A stretch of DNA of 24,296 nucleotides, from IMG/VR virus record IMGVR_UViG_3300047994_000303, positions 1 to 24,296 of that record. The stretch is one strand, 5' to 3'. Below, in pieces: positions 2,575 through 24,142 of this stretch (its first letter is position 1; every line of letters starts with the position of its first letter). A program made the position numbers and the translations under genes. The notes under the pieces are model-generated. The model searched no databases and had not been told where the DNA came from. It worked only from the letters and a program-made list of their open reading frames with translations. The DNA comes from a virus.

Positions 2575-3621
2575 TCAAGCCAAACTCCAAAATTCCGCGA
2601 TGCGCCGTGTCGTCGGCAGGTTCACATCAAGGATATATGGCGCAGCCTCGCCTGATTTTCCGTCGATAGGGTAACCATGCCCCATACCTTTGATGCTCCA
2701 CTGCTCCATGAGCGTCCTGCCCTTTCCGGCCCAAGTCCGGTGACGTACCGCCCCAATAGTTGCATCGATGTCGCACGCCAAGCCTAGGCCATGGACGGTG
2801 CCCCACTGGGTCGCCAGAAGATCAGCGTTGTGCGGATCGACCACGGTGTCCGATGCACCGTGCCAGATGGAGATGCGCGGCCATCTGCGCCAATAGCCGG
2901 GAGGAGCAGCGCCCCTGACCTGGGCTGCCCACTCGTCTGGCGTTCGCTTCGGCCCGGCATGCGCCATGCGCATCAGCGCTTGCGCCCCCGTCGCCGCAGC
3001 ACCAACCGGCAGCCCTGCCACAACAGCACCACCGGCGAAGACATCCGGGTATGCCGCCAACAATGCCGCTGTCATGGCGCCGCCAGCCGACAATCCGACA
3101 ACGAAGACCCGCTGCTTATCCGTTTGAAAAAGTTTGATCCCACTATCGACCATCTGACGGATCGACAGCGCCTCCCCCTCGCCACGCCCCGTTTGTGCCG
3201 GCTGGAACCACTGAAAGCACCGACCGTGGTTGTTGCGACCGCTTTGCTCCGGCATCACAAGCGACAACCGCAATTCATCGGCCAGTGCGATCCACCCGCT
3301 GCCCTGGGCAAACTCAGCAGCGCCCTGGCCACAGCCATGCAGTACGACGACCAGCGGTGCACCGGACGGCACCCCCCCTGGCGGCGTATAGACCAGCATC
3401 CGCAAACGCCCCGGGTTGGCGCCAAACTCGTCAATTTCCTCGATACCCGGGGCTTGAAAAGAGGACGAGGCGGGAGTCGTCGGGATGGTGAAATTCGGAA
3501 GCCGCATTTCCTTGATCAGCGGCGAAGGCACTCGCATCTGTCCACCAACCTGGGATGACACTGCCCGCAGCATCGTTTGCATACTGCGTTTGGCGATATC
3601 TACATCGCGTGACCACTTCAT
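2575..3621 (-). CDS. PHB depolymerase-family esterase (alpha/beta hydrolase)
   Basis: 348 residues. The core is that of the Esterase_PHB family: an oxyanion-region motif LHGCGQ at 94-99, FQWFQP at 136-141, the nucleophile elbow GLSAGG with Ser178, a probable acidic residue in GASDTVVDP (Asp258 or Asp262), and the catalytic His315 in GMGHGYP. Members hydrolyse poly- or oligo-3-hydroxybutyrate or other short esters such as feruloyl or acetyl esters on sugars; the substrate cannot be decided here. No signal peptide is evident in the first 55 residues, which favours a cytoplasmic location or an unusual export route. GGAGG lies 12 bases before the ATG, a long but usable spacing. The gene converges on the repeat protein with only 11 bases between the stops, and no terminator is visible there. 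Confidence 0.88.
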   Translation of the reverse strand: MKWSRDVDIAKRSMQTMLRAVSSQVGGQMRVPSPLIKEMRLPNFTIPTTPASSSFQAPGIEEIDEFGANPGRLRMLVYTPPGGVPSGAPLVVVLHGCGQGAAEFAQGSGWIALADELRLSLVMPEQSGRNNHGRCFQWFQPAQTGRGEGEALSIRQMVDSGIKLFQTDKQRVFVVGLSAGGAMTAALLAAYPDVFAGGAVVAGLPVGAAATGAQALMRMAHAGPKRTPDEWAAQVRGAAPPGYWRRWPRISIWHGASDTVVDPHNADLLATQWGTVHGLGLACDIDATIGAVRHRTWAGKGRTLMEQWSIKGMGHGYPIDGKSGEAAPYILDVNLPTTRRIAEFWSLA

Positions 3622-4301: not shown

Positions 4302-4393
4302 ATTTGTGAGCGCGATCCATGGGGAGCAGGAGTTTGGCCGAATTCTTAGTGCATCCTCTGCTAGCCTCGGTAAGCGTGTCGGTTGAATATGCA

Positions 4394-5077
4394 ATGTCCG
4401 CACTGGATGCAACGCTGGAAGCCGAAATCGACCGGCTGTGGGATGTTGCTCAGTTACGGATTAAGTCGGGCGGTGCCGGCAGCTTATTTAATGGCCAAGT
4501 CTTCAGCGCCGATTACATTACAAAAAGCCATATCTGCGGCCATATGACCGAATTCCGCCGCATTGTAGCGCAAATCAGCCGCCCAGAGCTATACGAAGTC
4601 TTAGGACTGCGCCCGCTGGCGGTCTGCGGCGTGCTGCAATGCGTGAGCGGTGTGGTGATAGGCCGCCGGCACACCGGAGCGATTTATCAGGCCGGCATGT
4701 GGCAGTTACCCCCGGCAGGGAGCGTTGACGCAGGCGCGGTACGAATCGACGGCAGCATCGACCTCGCAGGCCAGCTTTTGAAGGAATTGCGTGAAGAACT
4801 AGGCATTTCGGCATCGCTGGTCGATCGGCCAACCCCACTTTGCCTCGTGGAACATCCTGGGACCCACATCTCCGACCTGGGCATGGCTATGACAACCGCG
4901 CTAGACGCCGCCGCCGTGCTTGCCATGCACCGAGTTGGCGGTAACAACGAGTATGATCCGCTGCTTGTGGTAGCCAAAGCGGATGTCCAGGCCTTTGTTC
5001 GCCGCGCCGGCAGTAAACTGGTGCCGCCCGCCGTGGAATTCCTACGCTGCGGAGGATTGCTGCCTTCGCAGGAGTAA
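4394..5077 (+). CDS. NUDIX hydrolase
   Basis: From the ATG at 4394 the protein has 227 residues. The frame is open back to 4319, and the start is uncertain because no good ribosome site precedes either ATG. The Nudix helix is clear in LLKELREELGI (residues about 128-138). It follows WQLPPAGSVD, and an insertion makes the spacing between the Gly and the REUxEE part longer than in the standard box; the usual upstream Glu is replaced (SIDL). An LFNG motif near residue 31 and a conserved-looking LGLRPLAVCGVL segment precede the box, a layout reminiscent of NUDT22-like UDP-sugar hydrolases; that comparison is from memory and weak. The expected activity is hydrolysis of a nucleoside diphosphate linked to another moiety. 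Confidence 0.75.
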   Translation: MSALDATLEAEIDRLWDVAQLRIKSGGAGSLFNGQVFSADYITKSHICGHMTEFRRIVAQISRPELYEVLGLRPLAVCGVLQCVSGVVIGRRHTGAIYQAGMWQLPPAGSVDAGAVRIDGSIDLAGQLLKELREELGISASLVDRPTPLCLVEHPGTHISDLGMAMTTALDAAAVLAMHRVGGNNEYDPLLVVAKADVQAFVRRAGSKLVPPAVEFLRCGGLLPSQE

Positions 5078-11173: not shown

Positions 11174-14100
11174 TTACGAACCCACACTGCACCACCAGGA
11201 TCCAGCAGCAGCGTTCCATTGGGCAGAAAAAGCCCCACCAGCAGCAAGCGAGGTAGGCGGTGTCTGGATATCGACGAGGCCACCGCCGCTGTCTTTGACG
11301 ATCAAGCTCTGAACGGCGATCTGAGAGCTGACACGGATCAGCTGCCCGTTGGTCGGGATCGCAGGAAGAGCCACAATTAACGAATTCAGGCTGCTTGATC
11401 CCAGTATCCGAAAGTCAGATGTCTCGTATGGGATGCCGATCGTCTGACCGGACGAAGGCGTAGCGGTCGCCATTGCCTGGCGTTCGATAACACTCGCAAA
11501 CGAGACAGGTCCTCCGAAATTCGTGACACCGCCGTTGGGATTTATTGATATTATACGGGGTAGCAGCGTCAACGCACCCGTGTTCGTGTTAAGTGTAAAG
11601 TCTGTGGGAGAGCCGTTAAAGGAATTGCCGATAATAGCATTTGTATTTTGCAGATTTGATACAACAACCGCGTTAGCCCCGTTAATTGCGTTCGCGACAA
11701 CCGTTGTATTCGATACCGTACCTCCTGCAATCGCAGTACTCGTTCCGCCAAGAGCGACACCCGCACCCGTGACACTACTAATAACGTTCGACGATATGAT
11801 ATTAGGCGTTACGCCCTGCTGACCTAGACTGCTGACGATAATGCCCGTCTCTGTCCCGGAAAAAGCCCCTAATATTGTATTTCCGGATATTACGTTGTTG
11901 TTGCACTCTTCCAGGTCTATTGCCGCCCAAGTCGCGCTAGCACTATTAAAACGCACGAAGGTGCTGCCCGATATGGTCGATAATGAGCCCCAGCTCACGA
12001 GAATGTCACGGTATTGGGCGTTGAATGTACTGTTGACGACATTCAACTGTTCGCTAGTGGTTATAGTCTGGAATGAAATGCTCTCGCCACTCGTTACCGT
12101 CCCTATTGTATTGGGAAGAAGCGTTATTTGGCCATTGGACTTATTGATCGCGGTAATGCGACTTTGCGGTGCTATACCAGTCCCATTAACAACCATACCC
12201 ACGGCAAGAAGGGGCGCGACGTTCGCCGAAACTATGATTGGGCTGCCCGCCACAGTCGTGGTAGTGGCTGTATAAGATACGGCGGGCGTGATGCCGCCCC
12301 AATTGATACCCCACCAATTTCCAATGATGGTGCAGCCCGAAACCGTCACGCCCTGCACATATCCATAGACATTAAGACCCGTCGAGTAACCTTGAATGAT
12401 ACAATCTGTGAGCGCGATAGACACGGCAAATAAATTGGCGCTCGGTGCCGCTATCGACAACCCAACGTCAGGCCCAGCGCTAGAGGCTCCCGGTGCTTGG
12501 ATATTAACGTTGCGAAGCTCAAAGCAAGTAAGGTTTTCAAGAACGATCCCTGTCAGCCAGCCTGAGGCTTGGGTCGGCCCACGAACGAAAATGTCTGATA
12601 AACCGCTGTTTCCGTAGTAAAGAGAGTTGGCTGTTGGATCGACAACAATCGAGAGACCGGTTCCATAAAGCACCGGTGATGTAGCGGATCTGACGATGTC
12701 GAGATCGGATACGCGTACCGATCCCCAGGAGCCAGACTTCTGCTTCAAAGTAAGCATCATGCCGTTGGTGGTACCGACAAACGAGAGCACGGTGTTGCCC
12801 GCTCCAGCGCCCTTAATGCTGATCGCGGTTCCAGCGATCGTTTGGATCAGCGCCTGACTGATGAGGTAACATCCGCTAGGCACAAAACCTGTTCCGCCTT
12901 GCGATGCAAGCGCTGACAGCCAACTTTGGATCGCTGCGGTATCGTCTGTGATCCCATCTCCCTTGGCACCAAAGTTTTTCGCATTCAGAGCATCGGCAAA
13001 ATAGGCAGCCAGTGTGCGATAGGAGGAGCCGCTCGTCGCAATCACCGTCGAAGCTGACGCGTCACTGCCTTTGAGAAGACGCTGCGCGATGGCATTGCCT
13101 AACATCGAAGCAGTTCCGGTGTCGCTTGGCGTCACATCGCCATTGCTTAAATCCACTCCGGACGTGGCGATCGAAAGGCTGCCACCAGTCAGCGATAGCC
13201 CGCCATTGGGAGCGAGGCCCACTGCCGTGAATTTTCCACCAGTCGCACCAATAATTGGCGATGTTGGCAGCGATGACAGTACTGTACCGACCTGAGCGTC
13301 GACGTACTGCTTCGGCGCTGCCTGTAGACTTGCAGTAGGATTCGCCGCCAGCGCCAGCGGACCCGTCATCGTTCCCCCAGACAGAGGAAGCGCAGTCAGA
13401 ATTTGAGTGTCAACGTAGTGCTTGGTCGTGGCCTGCACCGATGCCACAGGATCGCCGGCGAGTGCCAGCATTCCTGTCATTGTGCCGCCGCTTCTGGGGA
13501 GCACTGTTCCGATCTGGGTATCGACGTAGTCCTTGGTCGCCGCTTGAAGCGGTGTCACAGGGTCGGCCGACAGTGTTAAGGAACCAGTCATCGTGCCGCC
13601 AGCAAGCGGCAGGGCTGCTACGGTATGTGCATCAACGTATTGCTTGGTGGCTGCCTGCAGCGATGTCACGGGATCTGTCGCGAGAGTTAGCAACCCGCGC
13701 ATTGTTCCGCCGGTCAGCGGCAGTGACGTTCCGACTTGGCTATCGACGTAATGCTTGGTGGCTGCCTGGCTTGCCGCAACGGGATCGGCAGCCAGCGCGA
13801 GCACCCCGGTCATTACACCGCCAGTCGTTGGGAGAGCTTTCGCGACATTGGCATCGACGTATCCCTTCGTCGCGGCCTGCAAAGCGCTGCCGGGATCCGC
13901 CGCAAGCGTAAGCGGGCCCGTCAAAATGCCCCCAGCAAGCGGAAGCAGCCCCAAAGCTGCCAAGTCGACATATTGCTTCGTACTGGCCTGCAAAGCGGCC
14001 GTCGGATTAGTTGCAAGCATGAGAGCGCCGCTCATCGTACCGCCGGTTTTCGACAGCAGATTGGCCGCCATGTCGGCAAGCCGTTCACCCGTCGTTGTGC

Positions 14101-14509
14101 CGGTGGGGGTCACCAACAACTGCGAGATATCAAGACCCGACATCCCGGAGAGGCCGCTCATAAACTGCCAGTATGGGACGGCGGTATTCGTCCCCCCTTG
14201 GCTGAGGGGCACCAAATCCCCGCTAGCCGGAACGGTTCCAGTAGGGAGTCCGCTGACGACGTAGTTCGTGGTGGCCGAGAGAGTTCCCCCGTTCAGGACC
14301 AGATTCGCGCCAATCGTCAACGTTTCCGGTGCGCCAGTGCCGGCTGACTCACGGCCAAGGATTGTGCCTGTCGGCAGCGAAAGGGATGCCTGTAGGCCGG
14401 CCACGATCTGCGCACGGGTGACCTTGCGCGCAATGCCGCTTTGGCTTGCGAGCACTTCATCCGTATCGGAGGCCGCAGTAGCGGGCGCCAGTTCGTCAAT
14501 GGTGGGCAT
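11174..14509 (-). CDS. Long tail fibre/tailspike with 37-residue repeats and beta-helix domain
   Basis: 1111 residues. The N-terminal 85 residues (MPTIDELAPA, SDTDEVLASQSG, PTGTILGRESAGTGAPE) are paralogous to the start of the FnIII fibre. GDLVPLSQGGTNTAVPY at 97-113 repeats the short SQxG motif. Residues 151-409 hold seven 37-residue repeats with core GGTMTGxLxLAxDP and ATKxYVD, a familiar phage fibre shaft repeat. At about 512 NFGAKGDGITDDTAAIQ opens a pectate-lyase-3-like right-handed beta-helix of about 450 residues. It is followed by a C-terminal beta-rich tip ending WWCSVGS. Catalytic residues of a depolymerase cannot be picked out, so binding and degrading roles are both possible. A Shine-Dalgarno GGAG is present but 11 bases away. 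Confidence 0.87.
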   Translation of the reverse strand: MPTIDELAPATAASDTDEVLASQSGIARKVTRAQIVAGLQASLSLPTGTILGRESAGTGAPETLTIGANLVLNGGTLSATTNYVVSGLPTGTVPASGDLVPLSQGGTNTAVPYWQFMSGLSGMSGLDISQLLVTPTGTTTGERLADMAANLLSKTGGTMSGALMLATNPTAALQASTKQYVDLAALGLLPLAGGILTGPLTLAADPGSALQAATKGYVDANVAKALPTTGGVMTGVLALAADPVAASQAATKHYVDSQVGTSLPLTGGTMRGLLTLATDPVTSLQAATKQYVDAHTVAALPLAGGTMTGSLTLSADPVTPLQAATKDYVDTQIGTVLPRSGGTMTGMLALAGDPVASVQATTKHYVDTQILTALPLSGGTMTGPLALAANPTASLQAAPKQYVDAQVGTVLSSLPTSPIIGATGGKFTAVGLAPNGGLSLTGGSLSIATSGVDLSNGDVTPSDTGTASMLGNAIAQRLLKGSDASASTVIATSGSSYRTLAAYFADALNAKNFGAKGDGITDDTAAIQSWLSALASQGGTGFVPSGCYLISQALIQTIAGTAISIKGAGAGNTVLSFVGTTNGMMLTLKQKSGSWGSVRVSDLDIVRSATSPVLYGTGLSIVVDPTANSLYYGNSGLSDIFVRGPTQASGWLTGIVLENLTCFELRNVNIQAPGASSAGPDVGLSIAAPSANLFAVSIALTDCIIQGYSTGLNVYGYVQGVTVSGCTIIGNWWGINWGGITPAVSYTATTTTVAGSPIIVSANVAPLLAVGMVVNGTGIAPQSRITAINKSNGQITLLPNTIGTVTSGESISFQTITTSEQLNVVNSTFNAQYRDILVSWGSLSTISGSTFVRFNSASATWAAIDLEECNNNVISGNTILGAFSGTETGIIVSSLGQQGVTPNIISSNVISSVTGAGVALGGTSTAIAGGTVSNTTVVANAINGANAVVVSNLQNTNAIIGNSFNGSPTDFTLNTNTGALTLLPRIISINPNGGVTNFGGPVSFASVIERQAMATATPSSGQTIGIPYETSDFRILGSSSLNSLIVALPAIPTNGQLIRVSSQIAVQSLIVKDSGGGLVDIQTPPTSLAAGGAFSAQWNAAAGSWWCSVGS
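13283..14059 (-). repeat. Seven 111-bp in-frame tandem repeats in the fibre gene
   Basis: The repeat period is exactly 37 codons. Equivalent ATCRACGTA sites on the + strand at 13631 and 13742 are 111 bases apart. The protein repeats differ at several positions, with GGTMTG and QAATKxYVD best conserved; the first copy (SKTGGTMSG) and the last (QAAPKQYVD) are the most diverged. Confidence 0.9.
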
Positions 14510-17314: not shown

Positions 17315-18439
17315 TCAGTTCACCGTGATCAAACCGGCCTTGATTACGCCGTTTGGTACCGCCGCAATGTCAGCGGTCTGGCCGTTGATCTGTACTTGAG
17401 TGACATTGGCTACTTCCGACGACGCGCTATAGGCCAGTTGAATGACTCGGCTGATCGGCAGCGACGCACCAATTGGAAGACTATTTATAAAAAGCGTCAG
17501 TGCTCGCGAGACAGGAGCCGCAAGCTGCGCGCTGGTCACGGAACCGGAAACAGTCAACGTGAGCGTTACCCCGACGATGGTTACTGTGGGCGCCTGAACG
17601 GTGAACGTCGATCCGACCGGACGGACCGCGTCGACAGCCGTTTGAACTGTACTCAACAGGCTGGTAGAAGGATAGCCGCTGCCATCATCGACCGTGACAA
17701 CAAAGTTTCCCATCGACAGGTTGCCATAGACATCCTGATTCTCCTGGATCGTGTACAGCAGACCCTGCTGTATACTATTGACCGCATATCCGACCGCCAC
17801 TGCGGTGGCACGTGACCGGCTATCTATATAGTTCTGAAATCGAAGACGGAATGCTACGTCCGTCTCGGCATCAAGGCCGTTCGAGAATGCCGAAAGGTTT
17901 GTCACGGTATCAATCCCCGGCACCGCGGACGCCAGCAAAGTGATCGAACCCGCTTGCACGTTACCGCTCGAGCCTGGGAGGGTTGCGATGACGGGAACGT
18001 TCATCGTTGCTGCGCTGGCTCCCATTACATAGCCATTCTGAACTGCGTTCCATGAGGCATTCGTTGTGTCAGCGGCCACAGAAAATGTCTGCGTTCCGTC
18101 AGACGTCCGAACCAAAGATCCAACCGGAACGAGAGCTGTTCCAATCACCGTAAAGCGGGTGACCGTCACTACCCCGGTAGCGGCAGCGGCTGGCAGGCGA
18201 GTAAGCGCGAAATCCCCCATCCATGTGTCGAGGTCGCTTCCGGCACTCGTGGCGGCTCGGGTCGTCTGCAGCACGAGTAGTATTAGCCACTGTATCCACA
18301 GGGCAACCGACGCATTGGCTTCCAGTATGGCGCGAAGCGTTGAACCAACCGTCAGATCGAGGAGCTGTGTCGCCGCAGATTGTACGGAGGCCGCCATATT
18401 CTGAATCAGCGTGGAAAAGTTCTGCAGAGAGAGTTGCAT
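17315..18439 (-). CDS. Baseplate J/gp47-like protein
   Basis: 374 residues. The N-terminal helical part, GSDLDTWMGDFALTRLPAAA at about 68-87 and NGLDAETDVAFRLRFQNYID in the middle are hallmark segments of the baseplate J family, with the usual C-terminal beta domain containing VGVTLTLTVSG. This wedge component forms part of the baseplate rim in contractile tails. It starts three bases after the stop of the gp25-like gene. Confidence 0.9.
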   Translation of the reverse strand: MQLSLQNFSTLIQNMAASVQSAATQLLDLTVGSTLRAILEANASVALWIQWLILLVLQTTRAATSAGSDLDTWMGDFALTRLPAAAATGVVTVTRFTVIGTALVPVGSLVRTSDGTQTFSVAADTTNASWNAVQNGYVMGASAATMNVPVIATLPGSSGNVQAGSITLLASAVPGIDTVTNLSAFSNGLDAETDVAFRLRFQNYIDSRSRATAVAVGYAVNSIQQGLLYTIQENQDVYGNLSMGNFVVTVDDGSGYPSTSLLSTVQTAVDAVRPVGSTFTVQAPTVTIVGVTLTLTVSGSVTSAQLAAPVSRALTLFINSLPIGASLPISRVIQLAYSASSEVANVTQVQINGQTADIAAVPNGVIKAGLITVN

Positions 18440-21651: not shown

Positions 21652-22812
21652 TTAGTTGCCAATGGGCGCGCCGGGCCACGATGGTGTCATCCGGGGGTCG
21701 AACCCTGTCGCCCCGGCTTGCGGCCGAGCGATCTGCCGCTCCAGATGCCGGGTGATCCAGCGGCCCAGGGCCGCTCCGTCCAGGTGAATTTCTGCATATA
21801 CTGGCCTATTTTCCTGCGGCGCATCAGCGCTGGGAAGGTTGTCTGCCGGCCGCTTGGCGTCGGGCTGTCGGTCTGCAACAGTGAACCGTGGCTTTTCGGC
21901 TTGGAGGACTGGTGCGGTCGGTTCGCGTTGGCTGCCAATGAGAGGCTCCGAGTCCGGATAGGACGACAGGGGAGCGGCCGGCGCTGGTATGGAGGTGGCA
22001 TCTTGCGGCGTCTTTGCATGAAGGCCGAACGGCTCAAACCGCGATAGTGGCACACTCGGTTTGCGATCAGCGACCGGCGACGGGGTAGCGGGAGGTACGA
22101 AACTTACTGCAGGGGGCGTGAGATCAATCGTGGCCGCCGGCCGCTGCAGAGCAGGCGCGGCAACTCGTTCCGATACCGCTGCCGCGCGGTACAACAGGGG
22201 CATAGCGGTTGGCGATGGCATAGCAGTCGGGGGCGATATCGGCTTTCCGACAGCTAAAGGATCGGGTGCGCGCGAGCCCACGACATGCGCCGTCACAGCC
22301 GGCGGGACAGCAGGCTGCGCAATCGGCTGGGGCGTTGGGGGAATGGGCTGGCGGGCGGCGGGTGATGCTGCGGGCGCGGGTGCCACCTTGCCCGGCGCCG
22401 CCGGAGCGATTGGACTGGTCGGTTGCTTATCACCGCCATCTGGCGCGGTAGCCGTTGTTGGACGGTCCGTGGGCTCCGGCATCGACTGCCGGACGATGGT
22501 GGCCGCCGGCCGCCTATCCCGTGGCGCCTCGTCCTTCGATTGTGTTGTTTGCGGTTCAGCGGAGATAGTCGGGGCCAACGTCGGCTGTACGCGAAGCATG
22601 GCGGGTCTAGCGGCGGCCGGCCGAGCGATTGGCCGATCGGCGGGAGAAGGCACCGCAAGGCTGCGTGCAAGGTCGCGTAGTTCTAAAAGCCGAGCTGCGC
22701 TACCGGCAACTGCAACGTCGAGCGCGGCGAGATCCCGGCGTATGGCAAGAATGCCTTCCGAAACGCCGTCCTCCAGTGCTAGCGTGATGCCGATTGTGTA
22801 GGCATCGATCAT
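21652..22812 (-). CDS. Pro/Ala-rich protein in the tape-measure position
   Basis: 386 residues from the ATG at 22812, which overlaps the preceding stop as ATGA; the longer frame to 23028 lies over another gene. Residues 1-55 are helical (ITLALEDGVSEGILAIRRDL, AALDVAVAGSAARLLELRDL). Residues about 55-335 are low-complexity Pro/Ala/Thr with PTAMPSPTAMP and many PxP motifs. The last 50 residues are ordered (EIHLDGAALGRWITRHLERQ, then GFDPRMTPSWPG). It lies where a tape measure is expected, but it is short and lacks the long coiled coil and hydrophobic segments of usual tape measures. It could be a reduced tape measure or a linker protein. Confidence 0.6.
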   Translation of the reverse strand: MIDAYTIGITLALEDGVSEGILAIRRDLAALDVAVAGSAARLLELRDLARSLAVPSPADRPIARPAAARPAMLRVQPTLAPTISAEPQTTQSKDEAPRDRRPAATIVRQSMPEPTDRPTTATAPDGGDKQPTSPIAPAAPGKVAPAPAASPAARQPIPPTPQPIAQPAVPPAVTAHVVGSRAPDPLAVGKPISPPTAMPSPTAMPLLYRAAAVSERVAAPALQRPAATIDLTPPAVSFVPPATPSPVADRKPSVPLSRFEPFGLHAKTPQDATSIPAPAAPLSSYPDSEPLIGSQREPTAPVLQAEKPRFTVADRQPDAKRPADNLPSADAPQENRPVYAEIHLDGAALGRWITRHLERQIARPQAGATGFDPRMTPSWPGAPIGN

Positions 22813-23186
22813 GTGCGAGCCGCCAGGGCGTGAGCAATAGCGTCCGCGACACATGCCACGACGCTTTCGGCTTCCGCAGATGCCGTGGACGCGAGAAACG
22901 ACCGTGGCGGAATCGCGGCGGTCCCAAGTTCCTGATCTACCGCGACGTCGCTTGCCGATCCAATCACGGCCATGTTGACATCCGTTTCGTGGGAGATCGA
23001 GGCGCGCAAGGCACCGGTGCGCAGCCACGGCGCGCTATGATCCTGCCCTGATACGAAAGACAGCCCCTCTTTCACCTTTGCTTCCAGACTCCGCGCCGCC
23101 GCAGCGATGCCACCGGCGACGGCACCCGGAACGTCAAGGTTGGCGAGCCTGTCGTCAGCCTTGCGCAGCCCATCCAGTACGATCAC
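22809..23186 (-). CDS. HK97 gp10-like phage protein
   Basis: 125 residues from a GTG at 23186, with GGAGGG about nine bases upstream; the GTG overlaps the stop of the chaperone extension (GTGA). The pattern APWLRTGALRASISHETDV, then DQELGTAAIPPRSFLAST, matches the HK97 gp10-type minor tail/completion proteins. These usually lie in the head-tail junction cluster; here the gene stands between chaperone and tape-measure candidate, which is less usual. Confidence 0.65.
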   Translation of the reverse strand: MIVLDGLRKADDRLANLDVPGAVAGGIAAAARSLEAKVKEGLSFVSGQDHSAPWLRTGALRASISHETDVNMAVIGSASDVAVDQELGTAAIPPRSFLASTASAEAESVVACVADAIAHALAART

Positions 23187-23700
23187 GGCTGATCCCTCCA
23201 GCGCATCGTGTGCCAGTCGAAGATATGACCCGCCAAGGTGCCGAGTACGACGACGTACGCGAGCCGCTCATCATCGGGAAGATTGAAAGCGACGTCGAAA
23301 GGCACCCCGTTCTTAACCAGAAACAGACAGTCGATAAGATCGGGGTGCCTACTCAGTTTCCCGCCGTGGCCGCAATTTCGGCCGAGGTTGGTGACAGGTC
23401 GGGACGCAATGCACCCGCGACGGCCGAGATGCCAGCATCGCCAAGCCGCGCTACCATAGCCTCGATGTGGGATTCAGTTGTCGGCAACGGCACAGGCACG
23501 CCATCGACGGCCACAACCGACGATGCGAGAAGCGCCATACCGAGCCAGGGCTCGTTCTGGGCCAGGACGGGACCGGCCGCTTTGAACAGGCGCAGCTTGT
23601 CGAGCGCGTTCAAACGCCGCAGAGTCAAGTGGCTTCCAGTGCTTGTGACAGCAATTTGCTCGCCCACTGCAGCGGCCGAGATGCCAGGATTTGGCTCCAT
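23183..23700 (-). CDS. Tail assembly chaperone GT-type fusion made by -1 frameshift
   Basis: Reading the 115 codons of the chaperone gene and then shifting -1 at GGGAAAC gives 57 more codons, LSRHPDLIDCLFLVKNGVPF onward to FDWHTMRWRDQP, with TGA at 23185-23183. The product would be 172 residues. The extension has the look of conserved phage protein (hydrophobic core, no stop in that frame) and lacks an ATG that could start it independently; the only ATG is nine codons before its end. This is the lambda G/GT arrangement, in which the extended form makes a minority product needed for tape-measure loading. Confidence 0.82.
23353..23700 (-). CDS. Tail assembly chaperone (G-type, unshifted product)
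   Basis: 115 residues from the ATG at 23700, with AGGAG seven bases upstream; the longer frame to 23790 overlaps the tube gene and lacks a ribosome site. The helical part TLRRLNALDKLRLFKAAGPV and position between tail tube and tape-measure region fit tail assembly chaperones. The last codons are GGA AAC TGA, directly within the slippery site. Confidence 0.78.
   Translation of the reverse strand: MEPNPGISAAAVGEQIAVTSTGSHLTLRRLNALDKLRLFKAAGPVLAQNEPWLGMALLASSVVAVDGVPVPLPTTESHIEAMVARLGDAGISAVAGALRPDLSPTSAEIAATAGN
23356..23362 (-). promoter_or_regulatory. Slippery heptamer GGGAAAC for -1 frameshifting
   Basis: In the zero frame the bases are G GGA AAC, a perfect X XXY YYZ heptamer; after slippage both tRNAs re-pair as GGG AAA. 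The next zero-frame codon is the TGA stop, so a ribosome meets the stop at the moment of slippage. The lambda G/GT site is GGGAAAG. Confidence 0.82.
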
Positions 23701-23713
23701 TACCTGTCTCCTG

Positions 23714-24142
23714 TCAGATCCGCATACGACGCGATGCAAAGAAGTCGAGCTTCTGCTTAACGCTCGAGTCGCCTTTCCACTGACCCGCACTCGATAGTTT
23801 GAACGATACGCTGTCGTACTGGTATGTTGATGTCGAACCGTCTGTTTCGGCTATGTACTGATACATTGTACCGAGCGCTGCCAAACTGCCGCCGTAATAG
23901 GTCTGCTCGGCGGCTGCGATGAAGTCGTCCGCCACGGAATTGCCACGCTCGATATCGAAACTTCCTTCCCACCCTTTGGGCAGTTCGGTTCCCATCTGCT
24001 TGCCGTCAAGCCGATCCACGCGTACAGATTGGGTGACTTGGCGCGCTTCGAAGCCTGTGACATGCGATAGGTCAACGCGGCCCGAAGGACCAATAACAAC
24101 GAGCTGGGTGTCGCGGCCAACGGAGAAGTTGTTCAGTGCCAT
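23714..24142 (-). CDS. Phage tail tube protein
   Basis: 142 residues. The beta-rich sequence SVGRDTQLVVIGPSGRVDLS, then GTELPKGWEGSFDIERGN and a C-terminal FKLSSAGQWKGDSSVKQKLD, is typical of small tail tube proteins that follow the sheath gene in myovirus-type prophages. It would polymerise inside the sheath as hexameric rings. AGGA stands nine bases before the ATG. The sheath gene stop is 12 bases upstream and the chaperone gene starts 13 bases after its stop. Confidence 0.78.
   Translation of the reverse strand: MALNNFSVGRDTQLVVIGPSGRVDLSHVTGFEARQVTQSVRVDRLDGKQMGTELPKGWEGSFDIERGNSVADDFIAAAEQTYYGGSLAALGTMYQYIAETDGSTSTYQYDSVSFKLSSAGQWKGDSSVKQKLDFFASRRMRI

What the first reader, a model, noticed from the sequence alone, without database searches (positions are those of the whole stretch)
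23183..23700. Programmed -1 frameshift GGGAAAC at the chaperone stop, with a start-less 57-codon extension
Seen directly: a perfect X XXY YYZ heptamer in the correct phase, the zero-frame TGA next to it, and a -1 frame open for 57 codons that ends in a GTGA overlap with the next gene. Established: lambda-type G/GT tail chaperones use exactly this device, with GGGAAAG. The extension has no usable ATG, so frameshifting is the simplest way to make it, and gene callers would miss it. The stop codon immediately after the slip site may tune efficiency.
Basis: partly seen in the sequence, partly recalled or inferred. Interest (0 to 1): 0.75.

Follow-up and report, generated by a model that had tools for sequence, protein, structure and literature searches.

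The report
Phage tail-chaperone frameshift with conserved RNA hairpin
A phage gene for a tail-building helper protein ends in a built-in "slip" signal (GGGAAAC next to the stop codon, followed by an RNA hairpin) that should let some ribosomes change frame and make a 57-residue-longer version; this is a known trick of tailed phages, shown here by comparison to be kept across hundreds of relatives.

Summary
On the minus strand a 115-codon gene ends G_GGA_AAC|TGA (23362-23353). The -1 frame runs 57 more codons to a GTGA overlap with the next gene and has no usable start.

A query that excludes the slip site (codons 22 on) still found relatives with XXXAAAN exactly 63 nt upstream in 78 of 79 loci. 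Over all data, 230 of 235 distinct junctions carry it (137 GGGAAAC, 85 AAAAAAC, 8 others).

Its codon third positions are frozen, and it covaries in several lineages; one relative has GGGACGTTG...CAACGTCCC instead. The adjacent stop is usual, not universal.

The zero-frame product looks like a tail assembly chaperone: 21 of 76 relatives weakly match a chaperone PHROG, and the top two structural matches are YqbN and the HK97 chaperone. The extension is a confidently predicted helical domain of no known family.

It is widespread in Acetobacterales (159 of 397 genomes sampled). It is a new member of a known kind; Burkholderia phage KL1 has the same GGGAAAC-TGA arrangement. Two loci instead give the extension its own start.

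The parts
23356..23700 (-). Zero-frame product: probable tail assembly chaperone (G-like), 115 codons from ATG 23700
   Evidence: phrog_20383 in 76/76 relatives, phrog_508 (tail assembly chaperone) weakly in 21/76; AlphaFold pLDDT 86; best solved-structure matches YqbN 3klu and HK97 chaperone 2ob9 (Z 4.8 and 4.7, below a safe threshold)
23356..23362 (-). Slippery heptamer G_GGA_AAC
   Evidence: Sequence; 230 of 235 distinct junctions keep an XXXAAAN heptamer at this position (exceptions)
23353..23355 (-). Zero-frame stop TGA directly after the heptamer
   Evidence: adjacent stop in 114 of 132 unique junctions
23341..23350 (-). 5' arm of the hairpin (AGGCACCCCG; conserved core GGCACCCCG at 23349-23341, +7 to +15 after the heptamer)
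   Evidence: (window: -26.2 kcal/mol, z -4.96)
23300..23309 (-). 3' arm of the hairpin (CGGGGTGCCT; core CGGGGTGCC at 23309-23301)
   Evidence: codons Gly GGG 97/99 and Val GTG 100/101 against background 24% and 39%
23186..23356 (-). -1 frame extension, 57 codons (T-like domain); stop TGA 23185-23183
   Evidence: AlphaFold pLDDT 93.5, pTM 0.76, three helices; no Pfam or PHROG family for the window copy
22809..23186 (-). Next gene, starting at the GTGA overlap: tail completion / neck protein (125 aa)
   Evidence: phrog_5 7e-06, phrog_26 7.5e-06
23714..24142 (-). Gene upstream of the chaperone, in the tail tube position (142 aa); function inferred from gene order
   Evidence: phrog_12993, 2e-43, unknown function
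21652..22830 (-). 392-aa Pro/Ala-rich ORF in the tape-measure position (identity inferred from order only)
   Evidence: No Pfam or PHROG match

Best explanation
This is a programmed -1 ribosomal frameshift cassette of a contractile-tailed phage whose relatives are mostly found in Acetobacterales. Most ribosomes translate the 115-residue chaperone and stop at the TGA after GGGAAAC. While GGA is in the P site and AAC in the A site, a hairpin beginning 6 nt downstream holds the ribosome at the mRNA entrance; a minority of ribosomes slip back one base (GGA to GGG, AAC to AAA), skip the stop and add 57 residues. The short form would coat the tape measure protein and the rare long form would bring in the tail tube protein, as gpG and gpGT do in lambda. 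Shown here by sequence: the open frame, the lack of starts, the conserved heptamer, phase and hairpin, and the protein-level constraint on the extension. Inferred: that slippage occurs, its rate, the hairpin's stimulatory action, and the roles of the two products.
For: (1) Heptamer at a fixed place: all 80 loci found with the extension; 78 of 79 loci found with a query lacking the slip site; 59 of 60 further genome loci. 230 distinct junctions: GGGAAAC 137, AAAAAAC 85, AAAAAAT 4, AAAAAAA 2, AAAAAAG 1, GGGAAAT 1. (2) The zero-frame stop lies within 39 nt of the heptamer in all of them that were measured. (3) Extension under protein constraint: 21 invariant columns in 25 sequences, confident fold. 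(4) Hairpin: 97.6% of 909 cells paired in 101 sequences at 90% identity or less, 0 of 500 shuffles; with divergent rows added, 90.4% and 30 double changes, 0 of 500. Covarying rows L161, L432, L444, L427, L410, L306, L413, L407. (5) Frozen third positions: Gly19 GGG 97/99, Val20 GTG 100/101, His6 CAC 93/99, Lys2 AAA 101/101, against 24%, 39%, 26%, 44% elsewhere in the same extensions. (6) The 6-nt spacer fits the 5-8 nt given for stimulatory structures (PMC4066793). (7) Tail gene context and chaperone-like fold.
Against: No reporter, mass spectrometry or ribosome profiling. G_GGA_AAC is not among the best heptamers in E. coli, where AAG motifs are strongest (PMC4066793). The chaperone identity rests on weak profile matches (best window E 0.078), structural Z below 5 and gene order. 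Two loci (L321, L409) encode the extension as a separate ORF with an ATG and a Shine-Dalgarno-like GGAG in the +1 phase. One clade (L433, L438-L441, L443, L445, L446) keeps heptamer and stop but has no hairpin in this register, so the hairpin is not essential everywhere. Rows of the alignments are related, so shuffle counts are not probabilities.
Confidence: 0.92

Rival explanations
1. The extension is made by independent internal initiation, most plausibly at the GTG of codon 20.
For: GTG at codon 20 is nearly invariant (100/101), and some relatives have AGGA a few bases upstream. L321 and L409 do have what look like their own ATG starts.
Against: The GTG is part of the hairpin arm, and L161 changes it to GTC while changing the opposite arm to match, so the base is kept for pairing. 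Starting there would drop the conserved first 19 codons and helix 7-17 of the model, and would not explain the frozen GGGAAA or AAAAAA.
Confidence: 0.03
2. Termination-coupled slippage ('shifty stop'): the shift happens after AAC has moved to the P site while the stop waits in the A site, so release factor level sets the yield.
For: Stop directly after the heptamer in 114 of 132 unique junctions, using TGA, TAA and TAG.
Against: About one junction in seven has the stop 3 to 39 nt further on yet keeps heptamer and usually the hairpin. With the stop in the A site the hairpin would be only 3 nt away, less than the usual 5-8 nt (inference using PMC4066793).
Confidence: 0.1
3. Transcriptional slippage by RNA polymerase on the A-run makes mRNAs in the other frame.
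For: Many relatives have AAAAAAC.
Against: GGGAAAC has only three A's and is the commonest form (137 of 230); neither the hairpin nor the G-run is explained.
Confidence: 0.01
4. Sequencing error or decay split one gene into two.
For: L204 has a 1-nt deletion at the site, L172 lacks heptamer and intact stem.
Against: The same junction occurs in 230 distinct sequences from isolates, genomes and viral contigs, with a stop and a covarying hairpin.
Confidence: 0.005

Closest known systems
Burkholderia phage KL1 gp18/gp19 (PMC3483164)
   Same: Predicted GGGAAAC immediately upstream of the zero-frame TGA in a tail chaperone gene; an intervening tail gene before the tape measure; mfold stem-loop within 35 nt
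   Different: Siphovirus; longer extension (264 against 142 aa); prediction from one genome; homology to our proteins not tested
Lambda gpG/gpGT (PMC5009743)
   Same: -1 frameshift in a chaperone gene between tail protein and tape measure, longer product carrying a C-terminal domain
Caulobacter phages phiCbK (AAAAAAC) and Colossus (GGGAAAC) (PMC3556154)
   Same: The same two heptamers, in pre-tape-measure chaperone genes of phages of another Alphaproteobacterium
   Different: Hairpin and sequence relation not tested here
Komagataeibacter phages phiKX1/phiKX2 (LC644975/6; PMC8566455)
   Same: Homologous pair; phiKX1 has AAAAAAC-TGA and the same hairpin arms; myovirus
   Different: Deposited as two separate hypothetical proteins, the extension started at an internal ATG; the word frameshift does not occur in the paper
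Phage Mu-type -2 shift (as cited in PMC2628397)
   Same: Contractile tail, frameshifted chaperone pair
   Different: -2 rather than -1; only the exceptional loci L321 and L409 are in a phase compatible with -2/+1

Membership tests
[quoted passage not shown]
Tail assembly chaperone -1 frameshift pair (G/GT type) | Second ORF open in the -1 frame without its own start | tested here: met
Tail assembly chaperone -1 frameshift pair (G/GT type) | Located between major tail protein and tape measure genes | tested here: inconclusive
   Tube-position ORF upstream and a tape-measure-position ORF downstream after one intervening gene; neither named by a family; phiKX1 has an annotated sheath upstream
Tail assembly chaperone -1 frameshift pair (G/GT type) | Zero-frame product is a tail assembly chaperone | tested here: inconclusive
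   phrog_508 weak in 21/76; top structural rows YqbN and HK97 chaperone, Z 4.8 and 4.7; viral structure hits include tail assembly chaperones
Tail assembly chaperone -1 frameshift pair (G/GT type) | Both products are made in a fixed ratio and needed for tails | not testable with these tools
   Needs experiment
Stimulated -1 frameshift element | Structured RNA starting 5-8 nt after the heptamer, conserved | tested here: met
   6-nt spacer; spacing rule from PMC4066793
Stimulated -1 frameshift element | Upstream Shine-Dalgarno-like stimulator (optional feature) | tested here: not met
   No conserved SD-like sequence in the 40 nt upstream of the heptamer
Any Rfam family | Match to a described RNA family | tested here: not met
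   Nothing above gathering score in 23150-23450

The most novel reading that the evidence does not exclude
The heptamer, directly adjacent stop and hairpin at +7 form one inherited recoding element specific to this phage lineage, in which termination and slippage compete at the same codon, and whose AAC choice is dictated by host tRNA: one Acetobacterales genome (G429) carries tRNA-Lys CUU beside UUU, so AAG would be read by a tRNA that re-pairs poorly with AAA.
Probability: 0.2. Interest if true: 0.5.

Novelty: new member of a known kind. Interest (0 to 1): 0.35.

Why it matters
It corrects the annotation of a widespread gene pair (159 of 397 Acetobacterales genomes sampled; phiKX1 and phiKX2 in GenBank), which gene callers split or miss. 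It gives a large comparative set for a phage frameshift site, with a covarying hairpin, natural hairpin-less relatives and two natural replacements by a separate start, so the role of each signal can be tested. It also offers a bacterial case where A_AAC, weaker than A_AAG in E. coli, is nearly always chosen.

Tried and rejected
Upper helix in the hairpin loop (CCUGAUC/GGUCAGG): present in some but in shifting register, not conserved. Pseudoknot: no second helix of six pairs in more than 52% of sequences. Upstream Shine-Dalgarno stimulator: none conserved. Pfam, PHROG and PDB sequence searches for the extension: nothing convincing; Foldseek gave only weak matches (best viral match an unnamed 49-aa phage protein at E 0.095). 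Order of L161: 1 of 9 genomes; Planctomycetes: 1 of 392; class sample: 2 of 385. Long open -1 frames upstream in some loci (up to 201 codons) looked like in-frame fusions, but those read have heptamer and zero-frame stop, apart from L408, which is L172. L172/L408 has neither heptamer nor an intact stem and may be decayed. L447 has no heptamer at the usual place but CCCTTTG in phase 15 nt upstream.

Full report
WHAT IS THERE. The feature lies on the minus strand. A gene starting at ATG 23700 runs 115 codons and ends ...GCG GGA AAC TGA; the heptamer G_GGA_AAC occupies 23362-23356 and the stop 23355-23353. One base back, the frame reads CTG AGT AGG CAC CCC GAT ... CAG CCG TGA, 57 codons ending at 23183, four bases into the next gene's GTG start. 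In L044, which is identical here, no ATG, GTG or TTG lies in the 38 codons open upstream of the heptamer; the first start inside is GTG at codon 20. The window is a 24,296-base linear virus record. Only five in-phase heptamers of this kind occur in 6377 codons of its minus-strand genes, one of them here.

CONSERVATION OF THE SLIP SITE. A search with the extension gave 244 relatives, of which 80 were kept; all 80 carry the heptamer at the same place, 78 GGGAAAC and 2 AAAAAAC. Because the first codons were part of that query, the search was repeated with only the part after codon 21 (alignment A1). Of 79 new loci checked, 78 carry XXXAAAN exactly 63 nt upstream of the query start (55 GGGAAAC, 22 AAAAAAC, 1 AAAAAAA). 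Chaperone-based loci agree. Sixty further genome loci gave 59. In total 230 distinct junctions have the heptamer; five do not: L172 (same as L408), L204 (one-base deletion), L321, L409 and L447.

THE STOP. Among 132 unique junctions the zero-frame stop follows the heptamer directly in 114, after 3 nt in 3 and after 18 nt in 15; in the genome set it is direct in 58 of 59; a few divergent loci have it at 21 or 39 nt. TGA, TAA and TAG all occur. The stop is close in all cases, but adjacency is not obligatory.

THE HAIRPIN. Six bases after the heptamer lies GGCACCCCG, pairing with CGGGGTGCC 31 bases further on; in the window a tenth A-U pair closes it. The 58-nt segment folds at -26.2 kcal/mol, z -4.96 against dinucleotide shuffles. 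In 101 sequences no more than 90% identical, 97.6% of cells in the nine pairs are standard, five pairs show changes on both sides, and none of 500 shuffles reached the observed covariation. With the most divergent relatives added (116 sequences, 88% cut), 90.4% are paired and 30 cells changed on both sides, against a shuffle mean of 5.7. Slid registers also show many double changes (up to 38) but pair only 39-50% of cells, so the paired fraction together with the named replacements carries the argument. L161 (Elstera) has GGGACGTTG...CAACGTCCC, L432 AGGGGATGCC...GGCATCCCCT and L444 GGACGCCG...CGGCGTCC at the same register. L427, L410, L306, L413 and L407 show further compensations; on a protein tree these rows are spread over several branches, though L161 and L444 join as long branches.

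SYNONYMOUS CONSTRAINT. In the diverse set codon 19 is GGG in 97 of 99 Gly, codon 20 GTG in 100 of 101 Val, codon 6 CAC in 93 of 99 His and codon 2 AAA in 101 of 101 Lys; the same amino acids use these codons in 24, 39, 26 and 44% of cases elsewhere in the extension. This is constraint on the RNA, not on the protein. The near-invariant GTG is explained by pairing, because L161 has GTC there with a matching change opposite.

THE PROTEINS. The zero-frame product matches phrog_20383 (unknown function) in all 76 members and, weakly, phrog_508 (tail assembly chaperone) in 21. Its model (pLDDT 86) gives YqbN (3klu) and the HK97 chaperone (2ob9) as the two best solved structures, Z 4.8 and 4.7, rmsd 4.5 and 5.5 over 87 and 96 residues; these scores alone would not suffice. 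The extension alone is predicted with confidence (pLDDT 93.5, pTM 0.76, three helices) but belongs to no Pfam or PHROG family. Nearby genes are of a contractile tail: Baseplate_J and Phage_base_V clearly, Mu gp45 and sheath initiator weakly.

DISTRIBUTION. 159 of 397 genomes of the order of G005 (Limobrevibacterium, an Acetobacteraceae member) carry it, against 2 of 385 in a class-wide sample and 1 of 392 Planctomycetes. Planctomycete copies (Limnoglobus, Zavarzinella) keep heptamer and hairpin. Induced phages of acetic acid bacteria are all myoviruses (PMC8566455); phiKX1 carries the pair annotated as two separate hypothetical proteins.

WHY AAC. AAC is used in 222 of 230 and AAG once. In E. 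coli AAG heptamers are the most efficient (PMC4066793), and E. coli has one lysine tRNA for AAA and AAG (PMC5009743). The one Acetobacterales genome examined, G429, has both tRNA-Lys UUU and CUU. A CUU tRNA on AAG should re-pair poorly with AAA, which would explain the avoidance of AAG; this is inference from one genome.

ALTERNATIVES. Internal initiation at GTG 20, transcriptional slippage and sequencing error fit poorly (see rivals). Termination-coupled slippage is not excluded; the 6-nt spacer suits a ribosome with AAC in the A site better than one with the stop there. In L321 and L409 the extension has an ATG preceded by GGAG, in the +1 (or -2) phase and without heptamer: a natural replacement of frameshifting by a start codon, or a Mu-like -2 shift.

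NOVELTY. Frameshifted tail chaperones are well known (Xu et al. 2004 as cited in PMC5009743 and PMC3556154). GGGAAAC directly before TGA was predicted in phage KL1 (PMC3483164), and conserved hairpins are reported for 3 of 5 phage clusters in a bacterial survey (PMC4066793). What is new is this family, its covarying hairpin (no Rfam match) and its breadth. Frameshifting remains unmeasured.

Noticed in passing
L321 556-774; L409 427-771: The extension appears as a separate ORF with its own ATG and GGAG upstream, in the +1/-2 phase, without heptamer: a natural replacement of the frameshift or a Mu-like -2 shift.
   Followed up: partly
L433, L438-L441, L443, L445, L446: A clade (KKLASSPS...) that keeps AAAAAAC or AAAAAAT and an adjacent stop but has lost the hairpin.
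   Followed up: partly
window 17315-18439 (-): A second in-phase GGGAAAC inside the baseplate J gene, 387 nt before its stop; probably chance, a natural control.
   Followed up: no
window 21652-22830 (-): A 392-aa Pro/Ala-rich ORF sits where the tape measure should be; no family match, and it is short next to the 742-aa ORF in that position in phiKX1.
   Followed up: no
window 11174-14509 (-): Tail fibre-like ORF with about eight repeats of a TGGxMTGxLxLAxDPxxxxQAATKxYVD motif.
   Followed up: no
window 2575-3621 (-) and 4319-5077 (+): Esterase/PHB-depolymerase-like and NUDIX-like ORFs (read by eye), host-like genes at the left side of the record.
   Followed up: no
L447 (G733): No heptamer at the usual place but an in-phase CCCTTTG 15 nt upstream: possible alternative slip site.
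   Followed up: partly
L360, L365, L367 (tRNA loci of G429): An Acetobacterales genome carries tRNA-Lys UUU and CUU plus tRNA-Asn GUU, a possible reason why AAC replaces AAG in the heptamer.
   Followed up: partly
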